From positions 1 to 36,150 of the forward strand of contig JAOPZV010000146.1 in assembly GCA_025963935.1 (NCBI GenBank): a stretch of DNA of 36,150 nucleotides, read 5' to 3'. Shown here in pieces: positions 22,054 to 32,709 of this stretch; the first letter of the stretch is position 1, and each line of letters opens with the position of its first letter. The DNA is from Solirubrobacterales bacterium. GTDB lineage: Bacteria; Actinomycetota; Thermoleophilia; Solirubrobacterales; Solirubrobacteraceae. The notes under the pieces are model-generated. The model saw only the letters and a list, made by a program, of their open reading frames with translations. It was not told the DNA's origin and did not search any database. A program made the position numbers and the translations under genes.

Positions 22054-22464
22054 CTAGAAGACCGAGTCCTCGCCATCGTCGCCAGCGCCGACGCCCACCA
22101 GGTCACCCTCGTCTGCGGTGCGCTCGCCTGGGCTGTCAAGGAACTGAACGGTGTCGGCCACGATGCTGACCGCTTGACGCTTCTGCTGATCAGTGGTTTC
22201 CCACTCGCGCCAGTCCAGTCGTCCGTCGATCGCGACGCGACTGCCCTTGTGCATGTAGGTGCCTACGTTCTCGCCGGGGGCGCCGTAGACGCTCACGTCG
22301 AAATAGTTGGGGCGCTCGGTGTACTCGCCGTCGGAGTCGCGGCGGCTCGAGTTGCAAGCGATCCTCAGGCTGCACACGCTCGTCCCGGACGGTAACGCGC
22401 GGAGCTCGGGGGCGCGAGTCAAACGGCCGACGAGTACTACACGGTTGATGTTGAACTGGGGCAT
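22054..22464 (-). CDS. ssb: Single-stranded DNA-binding protein
   Basis: INRVVLVGRLTRAPELRALPSGTSVCSLRIACN; acidic tail DDGEDSVF. Confidence 0.95.
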   Translation of the reverse strand: MPQFNINRVVLVGRLTRAPELRALPSGTSVCSLRIACNSSRRDSDGEYTERPNYFDVSVYGAPGENVGTYMHKGSRVAIDGRLDWREWETTDQQKRQAVSIVADTVQFLDSPGERTADEGDLVGVGAGDDGEDSVF

Positions 22465-22509
22465 TGCTGGGTCTCCCTTTGATTCGTGGTTGACCCCCCA
22501 CTGCAGAAG

Positions 22510-23247
22510 CTACGCATCGCTTGGGATGGTTCTCGCGCGCGAGTCTGGCGACCGCTCCTCGGTGGCGAGGCAGTCGAAGGGGACCACCACAATCCGCTCG
22601 CTCGCACCGGCCCTGGCGATTGCGCGGACGAGCGCGCGCTCCACGTCAGCTGGGGCGAGATACAGCACCCCCGATATCCGAGGAGACCTCGCCCACGCGC
22701 GGCATATCTCCTCAAGGCGCCGCGGCGCCTTTATCGTCAGCTCCACCTCGACGGCGATCGGCAACTGGTAGAGCGATTCTTGCGGCCACAGCACGAGGTC
22801 CGGCCTGTGGAGCAGCGGACCACCATCGGGGCCTGTGCCCAGTCGTGCGCTGGCGAGGGCGGCGCCGGCGAGCCGCTCCTCCCGGCGCAGCTCGCGCTCG
22901 CCCACGACGTGGTGTCCCGGATAGCGACCCTCCAGCGCTCCCGCGGCATGCGCGCAGGCGATCGCATGCGGCGCATTTGCGACGCTGATCCGGCACGGGT
23001 CGATCCCGCGCAGGCCGGACGCCCGCATGCCGGCTTGCGTGACCGTGTACAGCGCCGGCTTTCCGGCCAAGGGACGTTGGCTGGTGAGCTGGCGGTCGCG
23101 CTCCGCGGCCACAAGCCTCGCACGGGCCGAGGCGACGGTTCCCCCCTCCCGCGCGGCGAGCGCCTCCGCTGTCACAGCTCCTATGCGGGCAGTCCATCCC
23201 AGGATCTCCACGCGCTCGTCAGACTGCTTGTTGCGTGACTGGACCAT
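22510..23247 (-). CDS. Replication-relaxation-like protein (N-terminal winged-helix region); start at 23245-23247 preferred
   Basis: AGGAGG Shine-Dalgarno immediately upstream of ATG 23247; VTQAGMRASGL, HAAGALEGRYPGHHVVGERELRREER, HRPDLVLWPQ, AVEVELTIKAPRRLEEI resemble the replication-relaxation family. Confidence 0.72.
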   Translation of the reverse strand: MVQSRNKQSDERVEILGWTARIGAVTAEALAAREGGTVASARARLVAAERDRQLTSQRPLAGKPALYTVTQAGMRASGLRGIDPCRISVANAPHAIACAHAAGALEGRYPGHHVVGERELRREERLAGAALASARLGTGPDGGPLLHRPDLVLWPQESLYQLPIAVEVELTIKAPRRLEEICRAWARSPRISGVLYLAPADVERALVRAIARAGASERIVVVPFDCLATEERSPDSRARTIPSDA

Positions 23248-23282
23248 TGGTCCTCCTATCTCTCGTCGTTTCAATGGGTTCT

Positions 23283-24902
23283 TCAGTGGGGCGCCGGGCG
23301 GAGGATCCGTCCGATACGCGCTCCGCCGTCGCGGCCGAGAACGATCACGGCGGCTCGCCCTGGGCTGAGGCTCCGGACCTCGTCGGCATCGAGGATCGGC
23401 TCGCGGGTGCGGGTCTGCGTCGTTCTGCCGTCGCTGTGCCGCGCGACCCTCCAGGCGCCCCTGGTCCCGGCCAGGCTCGCGATCAGCTCCGCGGATGCCG
23501 GCACGACCTGGCGATGTCCGATGAGTACCGAGAGGTTGCCCATCACCTGCTCGAGGAGCCGCTCCCTGCCGGGGGGACGCAGGTCGGAGACCTCCTGGGT
23601 GCCGAGCAGCAGAGATAGCCCCGCGGAGCGCGCACGGCCGAACAGCCGCACGACGTTCTCGGCGGCGACTGCCGAGAACTCGTCGATCACGACGAGGGTC
23701 GGCACCGGTCGCCCCTGCAGGCTCGCGGCAGTCGTCTGCAGGTCCTGCACGATCGCCGCTCCGAGGATCTGCGAGAGCAGCGGGCGGCTGTCGGCCTGGA
23801 GATTGAAATAGACGACCGCCCGCGCCTGCGTCGTCGCAAGCAGATCGAACTCCTCTGCATCATGAGTCCGCGGATCGAGCCAGCGGCCCACATCGGACTC
23901 GGTGAGGATCGCCAATCTGTCGCGGACGCCAGCGAGGTCGCTCCGCTGCCGCGCCGTTAGCGAATCGAGGTAGTCGTACGTCCCGCGTGAACGTGATTCG
24001 GGAAGGCTCCTCGCGAGCGTCTCCAACCGGTCAGGATCGAGGTGCTCGACGATCGCGCGAAGGCTGATCTCAACACCCTCGTCGCGAAGCGCGCGAACCA
24101 CGTGACCGAGGTAGCGCTGAGCCTGGCGCTGGTAGTGAGGCTCCGTGAAGCGCTCACCGGCGAGCACCTTGTCGGCGATCTCGGTCTCACCTCCGTGGGC
24201 GTACGGGTTGTAGATCGACGGGCCGCCCGGGGTCCACTCGAGGAACCTCCGGCCGGCGGCGTGGGCAGCGATGCGCAGGTGCTCGCGCATCTCCACGTCG
24301 CCCTTCGGGTCGACCACCACGGCGCCCAGCCCTTGTTCGATGGCGCGTACCGCCAGCAACGTCTGCGTGACCGTCTTGCCCGAGCCCGTGGCGCCGACGA
24401 CGAGCGTGTGCTTGCCTGCGCCCTCGCCCGCGAAGGGGACCGAGATGGCATGGCCCCGCTCGTCTGTGCCGACGATCAGGTCATCTCCCCTCCGCCAGCT
24501 GTTTCCGCCAGCCGCCTCGCGACGGCGCAGCTCCACGTTCGCGAGAGCCGACCGAAGCACCGAGAACGGCCCACCTCGACGAGCCGCGGCACGAGCGAGG
24601 TCGGCGCCGGCTGCGAGGTCTTCCCGGTGCCAGCGTCGACCGACTTTGCTTGCCGACACGCTCGCGACGAGCAGCGTGGATGTCCAGCCGCCGAGGCTCG
24701 AGCCGATCAGGAGCAGCGGCACCATGGACGTCGCGGCCCAGCCCCAGTGCAGCTGCCTGCTGCGCAGAAGGCGGGCCGTTGAGATGCCGATCAGCAGGCC
24801 GAGCACGCAGTGGACGGTGCTGGCGAGCAACCAGTGGGCGAGTTCTTCCGCCGGCGCGGCCGGACTCGCGGACGCTTCGGGGAATGGGTTCGATGAGGGC
24901 AT
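23283..24902 (-). CDS. VirD4/TraG/TraD-like type IV coupling ATPase with N-terminal TM helices
   Basis: Walker A LVVGATGSGKTVTQTLL, VVDPKGDVEMREHL, Walker B-like TLVVIDEFSAVAAENVVRLFGRARSAGLSLLLGTQEVSDL. Confidence 0.85.
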   Translation of the reverse strand: MPSSNPFPEASASPAAPAEELAHWLLASTVHCVLGLLIGISTARLLRSRQLHWGWAATSMVPLLLIGSSLGGWTSTLLVASVSASKVGRRWHREDLAAGADLARAAARRGGPFSVLRSALANVELRRREAAGGNSWRRGDDLIVGTDERGHAISVPFAGEGAGKHTLVVGATGSGKTVTQTLLAVRAIEQGLGAVVVDPKGDVEMREHLRIAAHAAGRRFLEWTPGGPSIYNPYAHGGETEIADKVLAGERFTEPHYQRQAQRYLGHVVRALRDEGVEISLRAIVEHLDPDRLETLARSLPESRSRGTYDYLDSLTARQRSDLAGVRDRLAILTESDVGRWLDPRTHDAEEFDLLATTQARAVVYFNLQADSRPLLSQILGAAIVQDLQTTAASLQGRPVPTLVVIDEFSAVAAENVVRLFGRARSAGLSLLLGTQEVSDLRPPGRERLLEQVMGNLSVLIGHRQVVPASAELIASLAGTRGAWRVARHSDGRTTQTRTREPILDADEVRSLSPGRAAVIVLGRDGGARIGRILRPAPH

Positions 24903-24923
24903 GGGTGCCGCTCCTTTCGTGCA

Positions 24924-25045
24924 CCGGCCGTGCGGCCGGCTGTCGAGGCCGGCCGAAGCCGGCCAGTGGCTAACGAGCTCTGGCCGACGCGGAGGTCGGC
25001 CGTAGCGGTGTTACGTGTGTGCCGGGCTCGAGCCGTTGAGCCCGG
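24924..25045 (-). promoter_or_regulatory. Array of four consecutive perfect hairpins in the leader of the VirD4-like gene
   Basis: Stems: 24924-24929/24934-24939; 24947-24953/24958-24964 (UUCG loop on minus strand); 24982-24988/24995-25001; 25022-25029/25038-25045. Confidence 0.7.
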
Positions 25046-25098
25046 TCCAGGTTGGGGTGCGCCGCGAGCGAGCCGGCGGGCTGCCAGAGACGCGCGGC

Positions 25099-25914
25099 TC
25101 AGGTCAGGCGGTAGCCAACTCCACGAACGTTGACCACCCAGCGACCCTCACCGTGAAGGCTCAGCTTGCGACGGAGCCTGCTGGCGTGGCTGTCCAGTGT
25201 CCGGGTGGAGTCGCCGCAGGCGTAACCCCAGATGGCGAGCAGCAGCTCGCTCTTGGCGAATACTCGGCGGGGATCACGAGCGAGATGACAGAGCAGCTCG
25301 AACTCGAGCCGGCGCAGTGTCACCGGCCACCCGTGGAGGCTGACGGAACGAGCTCGCGAGTCGATCGTGAGCTCCCCTATCTCGAGCCGCCGGCGCGCGA
25401 GCGGATGCACCTCGGAGCGCCGCAGAACCGCGCGGAGGCGTGCGCGGAGCTCCAGGTAGCTCGCCGGGCGGGCGAGAAAATCATCAGCACCGGTCTCAAA
25501 GGCACGGAGCACGTCCAGTTCGTGTGCCAGATCACCGACGACGATCGCCGGTACTGTCGAGTCCCACATCATGCAGCGGCTGCGCGGTTGTCGTATCTCC
25601 GTAAGCAGCCGCAGCGCGCCGTGTGGACCATCCACCTGGCCGAGCACAGCGAGCCTCGGTGCCGCGGCCGCGGCCAGCACACGAGCGTGCTCGGCCGTCA
25701 ATGCGAGCTTGCTGAGATAGCCGTCCGCGGCCAGCTGCGCGACTATCCCGCGCCCCATCTCTCCATCTGACTCGACCACGAGGATCGGCCGCTGTGCGAG
25801 TCGGTCCTCGCCGGCGCACGGTCCCAGCTCGACACCGCCGGACGGGCATGCACCAGGATCCGGGCACGGGAGGGACGACGGCGGCGTGGCGAGCTCGAGC
25901 GTTGCTCGCGTCAT
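25099..25914 (-). CDS. OmpR/PhoB-type winged-helix response regulator with degenerate receiver domain (ATG 25912-25914)
   Basis: Receiver-like ILVVESDGEMGRGIVAQLAADGY...ETGADDFLARPASYLELRARLRAVLRR plus wHTH KSELLLAIWGYACGDSTRTLDSHASRLRRKLSLHGEGRWVVNVRGVGYRL. Confidence 0.88.
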   Translation of the reverse strand: MTRATLELATPPSSLPCPDPGACPSGGVELGPCAGEDRLAQRPILVVESDGEMGRGIVAQLAADGYLSKLALTAEHARVLAAAAAPRLAVLGQVDGPHGALRLLTEIRQPRSRCMMWDSTVPAIVVGDLAHELDVLRAFETGADDFLARPASYLELRARLRAVLRRSEVHPLARRRLEIGELTIDSRARSVSLHGWPVTLRRLEFELLCHLARDPRRVFAKSELLLAIWGYACGDSTRTLDSHASRLRRKLSLHGEGRWVVNVRGVGYRLT

Positions 25915-26867
25915 GGCACTTCCACCTCGCGTGGACTGAGGCCGAGCCCGCGACGAGCGATGAGCGCAAGTACGTCGGTGTGAACCCAAGGCGTCGGGAT
26001 GCCCTGACCCGCCTCGGGCAGCAGCCCCAGTCGGCGAGCCAGCCAGCTGGTCTCGCCACTCTCGTTTCCTCGGCGGTCCCGCTTGACCCGGCCGCACCTG
26101 AGCGCGATCTCGCTCATGCTCAGCTGCTGGCGATCGGTGCTCGCGAGGACCGCTTCTCGGAGACACCGGTTGAGGACGATGGGGCTGTTCTGAACCCGAG
26201 TGAGCTCGGCTCGCAGGACGGTTGTCGAGACCTCCGGGTCGCAGTCGTGCAGCGCTAGCGCCCGGATGGAAAGGCCTCGCACAGGCTCATAGCTCTCCAG
26301 GGCAGCGACGGCCTCGCGCACACTGACGATGGCGTTGCATGCCGGTGCCGGCGTGCCGTGCCGCTGCCAGCGCAGCTCCGGGATGGACATGCCGGTCTGC
26401 ACGCGGTCAAGGCGGTAGCGATACCCGCGTTGATCAGACGGTTCCCGGTCAGCCAGCAGAGTGGCCGCAGAGAGCTGCACCTGTTCCTCTTCAGCGAGCG
26501 GAACGGTACGCGCGTCGCGCGGCGTCAGCGCCCGGCAGACAACGCGCCTGTCGCGTACATCGTCGATGTAACGAAGCGAGACGATGGCAGCGTTGTCAAC
26601 GGGCTCGTCCGCCGCGAGGTGCGCCACCAGCCGGCGATCGCCTTTCGTTGTGGCGTCTCTGTCCACGACCAGAACGCTCCCGCCCGCTCCCGGACATGCA
26701 TGGAGCTCGCGAGGATCACCGCGCCAGTCGACGTAGCGTCCGAGGAGACGGCCCTCGTGGCCGGCCGCACGGCGCCGAGCGGCGGCTTGATGGGGCCCGC
26801 TCGAGCCGGCGCCTCGCCGCTTGGCCGCTCGGCCGGCTTGCGAATGCTTTGAGAGGGATGGCGTCAT
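25911..26867 (-). CDS. Uncharacterised 318-aa protein, possible C-terminal HTH; ATGA overlap with the response regulator
   Basis: Uninterrupted ORF, 4-bp stop/start overlap with downstream gene; LSMSEIALRCGRVKRDRRG...SWLARRLGL looks HTH-like. Confidence 0.7.
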   Translation of the reverse strand: MTPSLSKHSQAGRAAKRRGAGSSGPHQAAARRRAAGHEGRLLGRYVDWRGDPRELHACPGAGGSVLVVDRDATTKGDRRLVAHLAADEPVDNAAIVSLRYIDDVRDRRVVCRALTPRDARTVPLAEEEQVQLSAATLLADREPSDQRGYRYRLDRVQTGMSIPELRWQRHGTPAPACNAIVSVREAVAALESYEPVRGLSIRALALHDCDPEVSTTVLRAELTRVQNSPIVLNRCLREAVLASTDRQQLSMSEIALRCGRVKRDRRGNESGETSWLARRLGLLPEAGQGIPTPWVHTDVLALIARRGLGLSPREVEVP

Positions 26868-30611: not shown

Positions 30612-31115
30612 ATGCCAGCGACAATTGTCGAGGAGACGTGCAGCGGTGCCGAGCAGGAGCTGACGCAACCCGCCGGTTTCCTGCTCGCGCAGCTTGGGCG
30701 GGCGATGACTCGTCGCTACCGCTGCGCGCTGTCGCCGATCGGGCTGAAGCCACGCGAGACCCATGCATTGCTGAGGCTGCGCGACGGTGGCGCGATGAGC
30801 CAGCAGGCTCTCGGCGTGGCGCTGGACATCGACGCGAGCAATCTAGTAGCGCTGCTGAACGATCTCGAATCAGAGAGCTTGATCAGCCGTCGGCGAGACC
30901 CCGCGGACAGGCGCCGTCACGTCGTGGAGGTCTCCAAGCGAGGCACGAAGCTCCTGAGCGAAGTGGAGCACGCAGCTGCCGAGGTCGAGGACGACTTCTT
31001 CGACGCGCTCGATGACGACGAGCGCGTCGCGTTGCAAGGTCTGCTCTCGCGCGTTGCGCGCAGCGCCGATGTGCCCTCACCGGCCGAGATGGCCGGTGAG
31101 GACAGCGCGTGCTGA
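30612..31115 (+). CDS. MarR family transcriptional regulator (ATG 30612)
   Basis: LKPRETHALLRLRDGGAMSQQALGVALDIDASNLVALLNDLESESLISRRRDPADRRRHVVEVSKRG. Confidence 0.93.
   Translation: MPATIVEETCSGAEQELTQPAGFLLAQLGRAMTRRYRCALSPIGLKPRETHALLRLRDGGAMSQQALGVALDIDASNLVALLNDLESESLISRRRDPADRRRHVVEVSKRGTKLLSEVEHAAAEVEDDFFDALDDDERVALQGLLSRVARSADVPSPAEMAGEDSAC
31075..31101 (+). terminator. Perfect 11-bp hairpin inside the 3' end of marR
   Basis: CCTCACCGGCC-GAGAT-GGCCGGTGAGG, 12 nt before the TGA codon. Confidence 0.45.
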
Positions 31116-31200
31116 AGACGGCGCTGGCAGAGAACTCGACGGCTCCGCCTCGTCTCGTGCGCTGAGGAGCTCGACCCTGCGACCTGGCCGGCGCGGATCC

Positions 31201-32709
31201 CTACGATTCGACCCGTTGCAGCGCCTCGACGGGGGGATGCGACTCGCGCCGGGACGCGGCGCCGTCTTCGGACGCTGTGGCCTTCTCGACGGCTGGCCCG
31301 TCGGCTCTGGCCTGGAGCAGCAGAGCGGCGATGCTCGCCGCGAGGACAGCGAACCCGGTCCCGACCAGGAATGCCGTGTGATAGCCGGCGCTGAGCGCGG
31401 CAATGCGACCGTGACCGGATGCGAGCAGGTGGCTCGTCCGGGACGCTGCGATGCTCGCGAGAATCGCCAGCCCGAGAGCGCCTCCCATCATGAAGGAGGT
31501 GTTGACGATGCCGGAGGCGAGACCGGAATCACTCTGCTCCACGTCACCCATCGCAGCCAGCAGCACCGGGTTGAATGCGATGCCGGCGCCGAAGCCCAGA
31601 AGGATCATGCTGGGCAGCACGTCGGTGAGGAAATGGCCACCGACCGGCGCTCGGGCGAACAGCCCCAGCCCTGCCGCGGCGAGCAGCAGCCCGGTTACGA
31701 GGGGACGCTTGAGCCCGAAGCGCATCACGAGCTTTGCCGAGCCGCCGAGCGATAGGGCGCCCATGATGAGGTTTGCCGGAAGGAACGCGAGGCCAACCTG
31801 CAGCGGGCTGTACCCGAGCACCAGCTGTAGGTACAGCGCCGACAGGAAGAACCAGGCGAACATCGCTCCGGCCCACAGCACCCCCACCGCGTTGGCCGTG
31901 GCCAGGTTGCGCAGCCGGAACAGGCCGAGCGGCACGAGTGGCGAGCGAACACGCGACTCAAAGGCGAGGAATCCTGCGAGCAACAACCCGGCAGCGGCGA
32001 GCAGCCCGAGGGTTTGCGCCGACGTCCAGCCCGCCTGGTTGCCGTTCACGATCGCGTAGACGGCAAGCATCAAGGAGGCAGTGATCGTGACCGCCCCGGC
32101 GACGTCGAGGCGAGGCCTCGAGTCGGCGCGCTGGCCGGCCGGCAGCACTCGCATCGCCAGCACGGACACGCCAATTCCGATCGGGACGTTGACGAGGAAG
32201 ATCCAGTGCCAGTTGAGCACGTCGGTCAGGACGCCGCCAAGCAGGACCCCGAGGCTACCGCCGCCCGCTGCAACGAAACCGAACACCCCCATCGCCTTCG
32301 CACGCTCGCCGGGCTCGTCGAACAGCGACACCATCAGCGACAGCGAGACCGCCGAGACCACCGCCCCGCCGAACCCCTGGACGACTCTGGCGGCGACCAG
32401 CATGCCCTGACTGGTTGCGGAGCCGCACAGCAGCGACGCGAGGGTGAACAGCACGATCCCTCCCAGGAACAGCCGCCGGTGGCCGAACAGGTCTCCGAGG
32501 CGTCCGCCCAGGAGCAGGAAGCCGCCAAACGTGAGCAGGTAGCTGTTCACCACCCATGCCAGGGACGATTCGGAGAACCCAAGGTCCTTCTTGATCGACG
32601 GTAGCGCCACGTTCACGATCGTGCTGTCCAGCACGATCATCAGTGACCCGAGGCAGAGCACGATCAGGGCAAACCAACGTGCGCGACTGTCCGACTTTCC
32701 TGAGGTCAC
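31201..32709 (-). CDS. MFS transporter, DHA2 (EmrB/QacA-like) family
   Basis: LDSTIVNVALPSIKKDLGFSESSLAWVVNSYLLTFGGFLLLGGRLGDLFGHRRLFLGG; about 14 TMs. Confidence 0.94.
   Translation of the reverse strand: MTSGKSDSRARWFALIVLCLGSLMIVLDSTIVNVALPSIKKDLGFSESSLAWVVNSYLLTFGGFLLLGGRLGDLFGHRRLFLGGIVLFTLASLLCGSATSQGMLVAARVVQGFGGAVVSAVSLSLMVSLFDEPGERAKAMGVFGFVAAGGGSLGVLLGGVLTDVLNWHWIFLVNVPIGIGVSVLAMRVLPAGQRADSRPRLDVAGAVTITASLMLAVYAIVNGNQAGWTSAQTLGLLAAAGLLLAGFLAFESRVRSPLVPLGLFRLRNLATANAVGVLWAGAMFAWFFLSALYLQLVLGYSPLQVGLAFLPANLIMGALSLGGSAKLVMRFGLKRPLVTGLLLAAAGLGLFARAPVGGHFLTDVLPSMILLGFGAGIAFNPVLLAAMGDVEQSDSGLASGIVNTSFMMGGALGLAILASIAASRTSHLLASGHGRIAALSAGYHTAFLVGTGFAVLAASIAALLLQARADGPAVEKATASEDGAASRRESHPPVEALQRVES

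What the first reader, a model, noticed from the sequence alone, without database searches (positions are those of the whole stretch)
24924..25045. Four tandem perfect hairpins, including a C(UUCG)G tetraloop, immediately upstream of the VirD4-like gene
In about 120 bp between the response-regulator stop and the ATPase start there are four separate perfect inverted repeats. Read on the transcribed minus strand they are CCGGGCTC-N8-GAGCCCGG, GGCCGAC-N6-GTCGGCC, GGCCGGC-UUCG-GCCGGCC and CCGGCC-GCAC-GGCCGG, followed by a GAAAGGAG SD-like sequence. The UUCG loop in the sense orientation argues for an RNA role (leader, attenuator or processing site); an oriT or ssDNA-initiation-like role is also conceivable beside a coupling protein.
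Basis: partly seen in the sequence, partly recalled or inferred. Interest (0 to 1): 0.72.

Follow-up and report, generated by a model that had tools for sequence, protein, structure and literature searches.

The report
Conserved RNA hairpins before TraG-like gene
The four hairpins are real and their pairing has been kept through compensating mutations across related soil bacteria, so they are almost certainly a working RNA control element, most likely a terminator-like brake between two halves of an operon rather than a DNA-transfer origin.

Summary
Between the response-regulator stop (25099) and the VirD4/TraG-like start (24902, minus strand) lie four perfect hairpins, and this is the most stem-rich 130-nt stretch of the window (0 of 2000 shuffles match it). 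Orthologues of the gene sit at the same chromosomal place (beside hrcA-dnaJ-prmA-phoH) in most species of the genus (Solirubrobacteraceae soil MAGs). Their leaders share one anatomy: AACTTGA box, hairpin 1, hairpin 2, CTCGTTAAC box, hairpin 3, optional hairpin 4, GAAAGGAG, start codon. Stem sequences differ but stay paired: 12 of 25 pairs show double changes; covariation score 0.318 against 0.171 in shuffles and 0.05-0.13 when slid. Sense-strand G.U pairs exceed A.C mismatches (24:12, against 0.60:1 in shuffles), so the RNA appears to be under selection. Hairpin 2 with its T/CGTTAAC tail resembles terminators after ssb and two tRNA genes in the genus, so I favour a U-poor terminator/attenuator cluster separating up2-RR from traG-mobC-ssb. 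The window copy lacks a proper U-tract, so an RNase-barrier role stays open. oriT and ssDNA-promoter readings are disfavoured. No Rfam match: a new member of a known kind.

The parts
25046..25053 (-). AACCTGGA, the window's version of the AACTTGA box that precedes hairpin 1 in relatives
   Evidence: alignment A2: GAACTTGA/AAACTTGA/GAGCTTGA in orthologues
25022..25045 (-). hairpin 1, CCGGGCTC-N8-GAGCCCGG
   Evidence: counterpart in orthologues; tandemly amplified about 7 times in G009
24982..25001 (-). hairpin 2, GGCCGAC-N6-GTCGGCC (longer imperfect arms 24977-25006); terminator-like in orthologues
   Evidence: covariation in 8 of 12 pairs; RNAalifold predicts it unprompted
24970..24977 (-). 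CTCGTTAG, the window's version of the CTCGTTAAC box after hairpin 2
   Evidence: the same tail is found after a tRNA-Leu terminator in G003 (TTTTCTCGTTAAC)
24947..24964 (-). hairpin 3, GGCCGGC-UUCG-GCCGGCC
   Evidence: 95.7% of cells paired in 10 orthologues, 3 pairs with double changes
24924..24939 (-). hairpin 4, CCGGCC-GCAC-GGCCGG, an optional module; its presence or absence gives two hp2-to-ATG spacings (51-55 or 78-81 nt in nine of ten species)
24911..24918 (-). GAAAGGAG Shine-Dalgarno sequence, conserved
23283..24902 (-). VirD4/TraD-like coupling-protein ATPase (TraG-D_C, TrwB_AAD_bind)
   Evidence: Pfam; NCBIfam SXT_TraD 1.1e-32, below its curated cut-off
25099..25917 (-). OmpR/PhoB-type response regulator (Trans_reg_C), missing from this place in several orthologues that keep the hairpins
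   Evidence: start codon approximate
25911..26867 (-). up2, a conserved protein of unknown family, first gene of the module
   Evidence: no Pfam or NCBIfam hit
22510..23274 (-). distant MobC/replication-relaxation-like protein (weak)
   Evidence: NF041423 E=0.0046, below cut-off
22054..22464 (-). second SSB of the genome, last gene before the MaoC-like pair and hrcA

Best explanation
It is a conserved cis-acting RNA element in the transcript between up2-RR and traG-mobC-ssb. As RNA polymerase leaves the upstream gene, hairpins 1 and 2 form in the nascent RNA. Hairpin 2, followed by a short U-containing CUCGUUAAC tail, acts as a weak (U-poor) intrinsic terminator/attenuator, so only part of the transcripts continue. 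Hairpin 3 (plus 4 where present) sits on the 5' side of a strong GAAAGGAG ribosome-binding site and caps and stabilises the read-through or processed traG message. The result would be a lower or separately tuned output of the coupling-ATPase segment compared with the regulator segment. Shown: position, conservation, covariation, sense-strand RNA bias, resemblance to terminators of the same genus. Inferred: that transcription actually ends or is attenuated there, and the stabilising role of hairpins 3 and 4.
For: Covariation on a sequence-only alignment of 10 orthologous leaders: 12 of 25 pairs with double changes; score 0.318 against 0.171 +/- 0.022 shuffled (0/500) and 0.05-0.13 when slid. 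The covariance model hits held-out orthologues at the right place (L050 E=2.7e-4; L048, L043, L015 at 0.008-0.025) and gives strong hits only at this locus across 146 family genomes. Sense G.U 24 against A.C 12, where shuffles give 0.60:1 (binomial p = 4e-4), points to selection on the sense RNA. The hairpins remain in most species where the RR gene is absent, so they belong to the traG leader. Stem density in this gap is 8-11 bp/100 nt, against 5.7 at the operon end after ssb and 0-1 between relax-ssb and hrcA-dnaJ. Operon-end hairpins after ssb carry tails TTTTTGCGTTAAC, TTTTCGTCGTTAACG; terminators after tRNA-Leu and tRNA-Gly in G003 carry TTTTCTCGTTAAC and TTTTGTCGTTAA; hairpin 2 in L005, L014 and L024 ends TTCTCGTTAACC, TTCTCGTTAACC and TTTCTGCGTTAA.
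Against: The tail of hairpin 2 is U-poor in most species (1-6 T in 12; 3 in the window), and the consensus terminator scan does not call it in the window or in L055, L049, L046; it does call one in L025. Own-genome tRNA terminators have better U-tracts. The TNTCGTTAA motif alone is mostly not linked to hairpins genome-wide (5 of 30 sites). No promoter or expression data exist.
Confidence: 0.5

Rival explanations
1. Intercistronic processing/stabiliser cluster: no termination occurs; the polycistronic RNA is cut in the unpaired boxes and the hairpins act as exonuclease barriers at the new 3' end (hairpins 1, 2) and 5' end (hairpins 3, 4), giving unequal segment stability.
For: Fits conserved stems without U-tracts, hairpins packed against the ribosome-binding site, optional hairpin 4 and hairpin-1 amplification, and RNA-sense selection. 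Precedents: malE-malF and papBA-like barriers as described in PMC5927463.
Against: The hairpin 2 plus CGTTAAC tail recurs at likely transcript ends in the genus, which a barrier alone would not need.
Confidence: 0.27
2. Regulated leader: a trans-acting protein (or the downstream ATPase/MobC-like protein itself) binds one of the hairpins and controls read-through or translation, as in ANTAR- or RAT-type antitermination.
For: Several conserved unpaired boxes (AACTTGA, CTCGTTAAC) and a nearby response regulator.
Against: The regulator has an OmpR-type DNA-binding domain, not ANTAR, and is absent from this place in several species with the hairpins. Loops are not conserved in sequence or length, and no mutually exclusive antiterminator fold recurs across species (inspection).
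Confidence: 0.13
3. DNA element: oriT, single-strand initiation site or Frpo-like ssDNA promoter beside the coupling protein.
For: Gene neighbourhood: coupling-protein ATPase, distant MobC-like protein, SSB.
Against: Vertically inherited at one chromosomal place; stem sequence not conserved as a nick or protein site would be; strand-specific G.U tolerance; no VirB4-family match in the own genome.
Confidence: 0.05
4. Chance hairpins of a 70% GC genome.
For: Short GC-rich palindromes are common at this composition.
Against: 0/2000 shuffles; positional conservation and covariation.
Confidence: 0.01

Closest known systems
Intrinsic (Rho-independent) transcription terminators / attenuators
   Same: GC-rich hairpin with small loop, A-containing 5' shoulder and T-containing tail in some orthologues; located 50-90 nt before a downstream start; same tail as tRNA and ssb terminators of the genus
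   Different: U-tract weak or absent in most copies including the window; sits inside a syntenic gene module; flanked by further conserved hairpins
Hairpin-cluster terminators (PMC8355165)
   Same: Several short hairpins close together within 80 nt of a stop codon; there predicted and matched to RNA-seq ends in 13 genomes
   Different: That class is statistical; here one particular cluster is conserved with covariation. Two of the three gaps exceed the paper's 15-nt rule if only the perfect stems are counted
Intercistronic mRNA-decay barriers (malE-malF, papBA, puf; discussed or cited in PMC5927463)
   Same: Stable stems between unequal segments of an operon
   Different: No cleavage or decay data here; described cases are in proteobacteria
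ANTAR two-hairpin antitermination RNA (own knowledge)
   Same: Tandem hairpins, one overlapping a terminator, response regulator nearby
   Different: Adjacent regulator lacks ANTAR; loops are not conserved hexaloops

Membership tests
Intrinsic terminator | Stable GC-rich hairpin in the transcribed strand | tested here: met
Intrinsic terminator | U-tract directly after the stem | tested here: inconclusive
   window 3 T in 12 and not called by the scan; L005, L014, L016, L024 have 5-6 T in 12; scan positive in L025
Intrinsic terminator | RNA 3' ends form there | not testable with these tools
   no transcript data held
Hairpin-cluster terminator (PMC8355165) | Hairpins under 15 nt apart, within 80 nt of the stop codon | tested here: inconclusive
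   first hairpin 53 nt after the RR stop; gaps 20, 17 and 7 nt for perfect stems, about 15, 12 and 7 nt with extended hairpin 2 arms
Covarying structured RNA | Compensatory changes that keep pairs | tested here: met
Known Rfam family | Score at or above the gathering threshold | tested here: not met
   none; only chance-level matches
ANTAR-controlled leader | ANTAR-domain regulator | tested here: not met
   the adjacent regulator has Trans_reg_C only; the rest of the genome was not searched for ANTAR
ANTAR-controlled leader | Two hairpins with A1/G4 hexaloops | tested here: not met
   loops of 8, 6, 4 and 4 nt with no shared hexaloop
oriT | Conserved nic sequence and cognate relaxase | tested here: not met
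   stems vary in sequence between species; MobC-like protein matches only weakly, below cut-off
oriT | Carried by a mobile element | tested here: not met
   module syntenic beside hrcA-dnaJ-prmA-phoH in most genus members

The most novel reading that the evidence does not exclude
A lineage-specific, modular hairpin array that serves as a regulated RNA switch for a domesticated DNA-translocase module (up2, regulator, TraG-like ATPase, MobC-like protein, second SSB) fixed in the chromosome of Solirubrobacteraceae, with hairpins gained, lost or amplified as tuning units.
Probability: 0.12. Interest if true: 0.65.

Novelty: new member of a known kind. Interest (0 to 1): 0.36.

Why it matters
It gives a covariation-supported RNA element, absent from Rfam, in a poorly studied actinobacterial lineage. 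It also shows natural replicates of a terminator/attenuator-like cluster in which hairpin number and tail strength vary between species, useful for asking how high-GC bacteria end or divide transcripts with weak U-tracts. It marks a vertically inherited coupling-ATPase/SSB module whose role in these bacteria is unknown.

Tried and rejected
Rfam at gathering and relaxed thresholds: nothing. A genome-wide motif reading of CTCGTTAAC: one exact match in the own genome, and TNTCGTTAA mostly unrelated to hairpins, so the tail is a feature of some terminators, not a diagnostic motif. Leader peptide starting at CATGCAG after hairpin 1: frames and lengths differ between species, and the window copy has no ATG there (inspection). 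Alternative antiterminator folds: arms shared in the window and L009 only, not conserved. Promoter between hairpin 2 and the ATG: no conserved -10/-35, and the scan finds none there in the window or in orthologues. A same-genus weak model hit without traG (L156, G018, E=5e-4) showed no related gene nearby and was set aside as chance. In alignment A2 the L014 row lacks a 24-nt insertion between hairpins 1 and 2 (itself able to form a small hairpin), which I left out to keep the columns in register.

Full report
Observation. In perfect stems of at least 6 bp they add up to 28 bp, against 4.2 +/- 5.0 in dinucleotide shuffles (0 of 2000), and no other 130-nt stretch of the 36-kb window scores as high. 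The sense RNA folds with z = -4.9. GC content therefore does not explain them.

Context. The minus-strand genes are up2 (unknown family), an OmpR/PhoB-type regulator, a VirD4/TraD-like ATPase, a protein with weak MobC/replication-relaxation similarity, and an SSB that is the second of two in the genome. Twenty-kilobase neighbourhoods from relatives show this module beside hrcA-dnaJ-prmA-phoH in most species of the genus and in two further genera of the family. Public titles place the relatives in Solirubrobacteraceae/Solirubrobacterales MAGs. The module is thus inherited with the chromosome. No VirB4-family match was found in the own genome (a MAG, 82.5% complete); those in relatives are below the family cut-off.

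Conservation. Leaders of the orthologous ATPase gene share a layout: AACTTGA box, hairpin 1, spacer often CATGCAGCAC, hairpin 2, CTCGTTAAC box, hairpin 3, optional hairpin 4, GAAAGGAG, start codon. The regulator gene is missing in between in six species (L003, L004, L008, L010, L013, L016), yet most of these keep the hairpins, so the array belongs to the ATPase leader. In L008 and L010 the stems are not above chance, and the most distant relatives (L019, L020-L023) have short or plain gaps, so the full array is a feature of the nearer part of the genus. Optional hairpin 4 produces two spacings from hairpin 2 to the start, 51-55 or 78-81 nt, in nine of ten species measured. In G009 the hairpin-1 unit is tandemly amplified about seven times with a 25-27 nt period.

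Covariation. On a MAFFT alignment made from sequence alone, RNAalifold predicts hairpins 2 and 3 unprompted, with double changes in 8 of 14 pairs. Counting the three named helices gives 12 of 25 pairs with changes on both sides, 85% of cells paired, and a covariation score of 0.318 (0/500 shuffles; slid controls 0.05-0.13). The ten species were chosen because their leaders looked alike, and relatedness is not modelled, so these figures are supportive rather than exact probabilities. A covariance model finds four held-out orthologues at the right place (E from 2.7e-4 to 0.025) and gives strong hits only at this locus, once per genome, in 146 family genomes.

RNA rather than DNA. With G.T and A.C treated alike in hairpin finding, the leaders carry 24 sense G.U pairs and 12 A.C mismatches, whereas shuffles give 0.60 to 1 (binomial p = 4e-4). 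An RNA of the sense strand would tolerate this asymmetry; a DNA site would have no reason for it. An oriT or operator would also be expected to conserve sequence, not just pairing.

What kind of RNA element. Compared with other gaps in the same neighbourhoods, the regulator/up2-to-ATPase gap has the highest stem density (8-11 bp per 100 nt); the end of the module after ssb has 5.7, and the other gaps 0-5. Hairpins after ssb end in TTTTTGCGTTAAC-like tails, and tRNA-Leu and tRNA-Gly genes of G003 are followed by hairpins with TTTTCTCGTTAAC and TTTTGTCGTTAA. Hairpin 2 in L005, L014 and L024 is followed by TTCTCGTTAACC or TTTCTGCGTTAA. This is the main reason for reading hairpin 2 as a terminator/attenuator. 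The weak point is the window copy itself, whose tail AGAGCTCGTTAG is U-poor and not called by the scan. A partial terminator, or one that relies on the hairpin cluster as proposed in PMC8355165, is the reading I commit to at 0.5; an RNase-barrier role of the kind described in PMC5927463 is the main rival at 0.27.

Verdict. The finding is a new, covariation-supported member of the known class of intercistronic hairpin elements. Its interest is moderate.

Noticed in passing
window 22054-26867: A TraG/VirD4-like ATPase, weak MobC-like protein and second SSB form a module fixed beside hrcA-dnaJ in most of the genus, with no VirB4-family match in the own genome; its role is unknown and might be a domesticated DNA-transfer or DNA-processing system.
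   Followed up: partly
L174-L177, L180, L182-L184 around position 1480-1540: A multi-copy element in G002, G016, G018 and G020 with iterated TTAAC boxes (of the type GGCTTAACCATTTTCCCGTTAAGTCGTGAGTTAAGCAA) next to a Shine-Dalgarno complement; looks like a shared promoter/operator family.
   Followed up: no
L047 9585-9764: Hairpin-1 unit amplified to about seven tandem copies (period 25-27 nt) upstream of the ATPase gene in G009.
   Followed up: partly
L015 1007-1205: Three tandem copies of a 65-nt repeat in the same gap in G021, so this gap tends to carry repeats in several species.
   Followed up: no
window 30970-31240: Second most stem-rich stretch of the window, at and after the 3' end of the MFS transporter gene, including CTCACCGGCC-N5-GGCCGGTGAG on the minus strand.
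   Followed up: no
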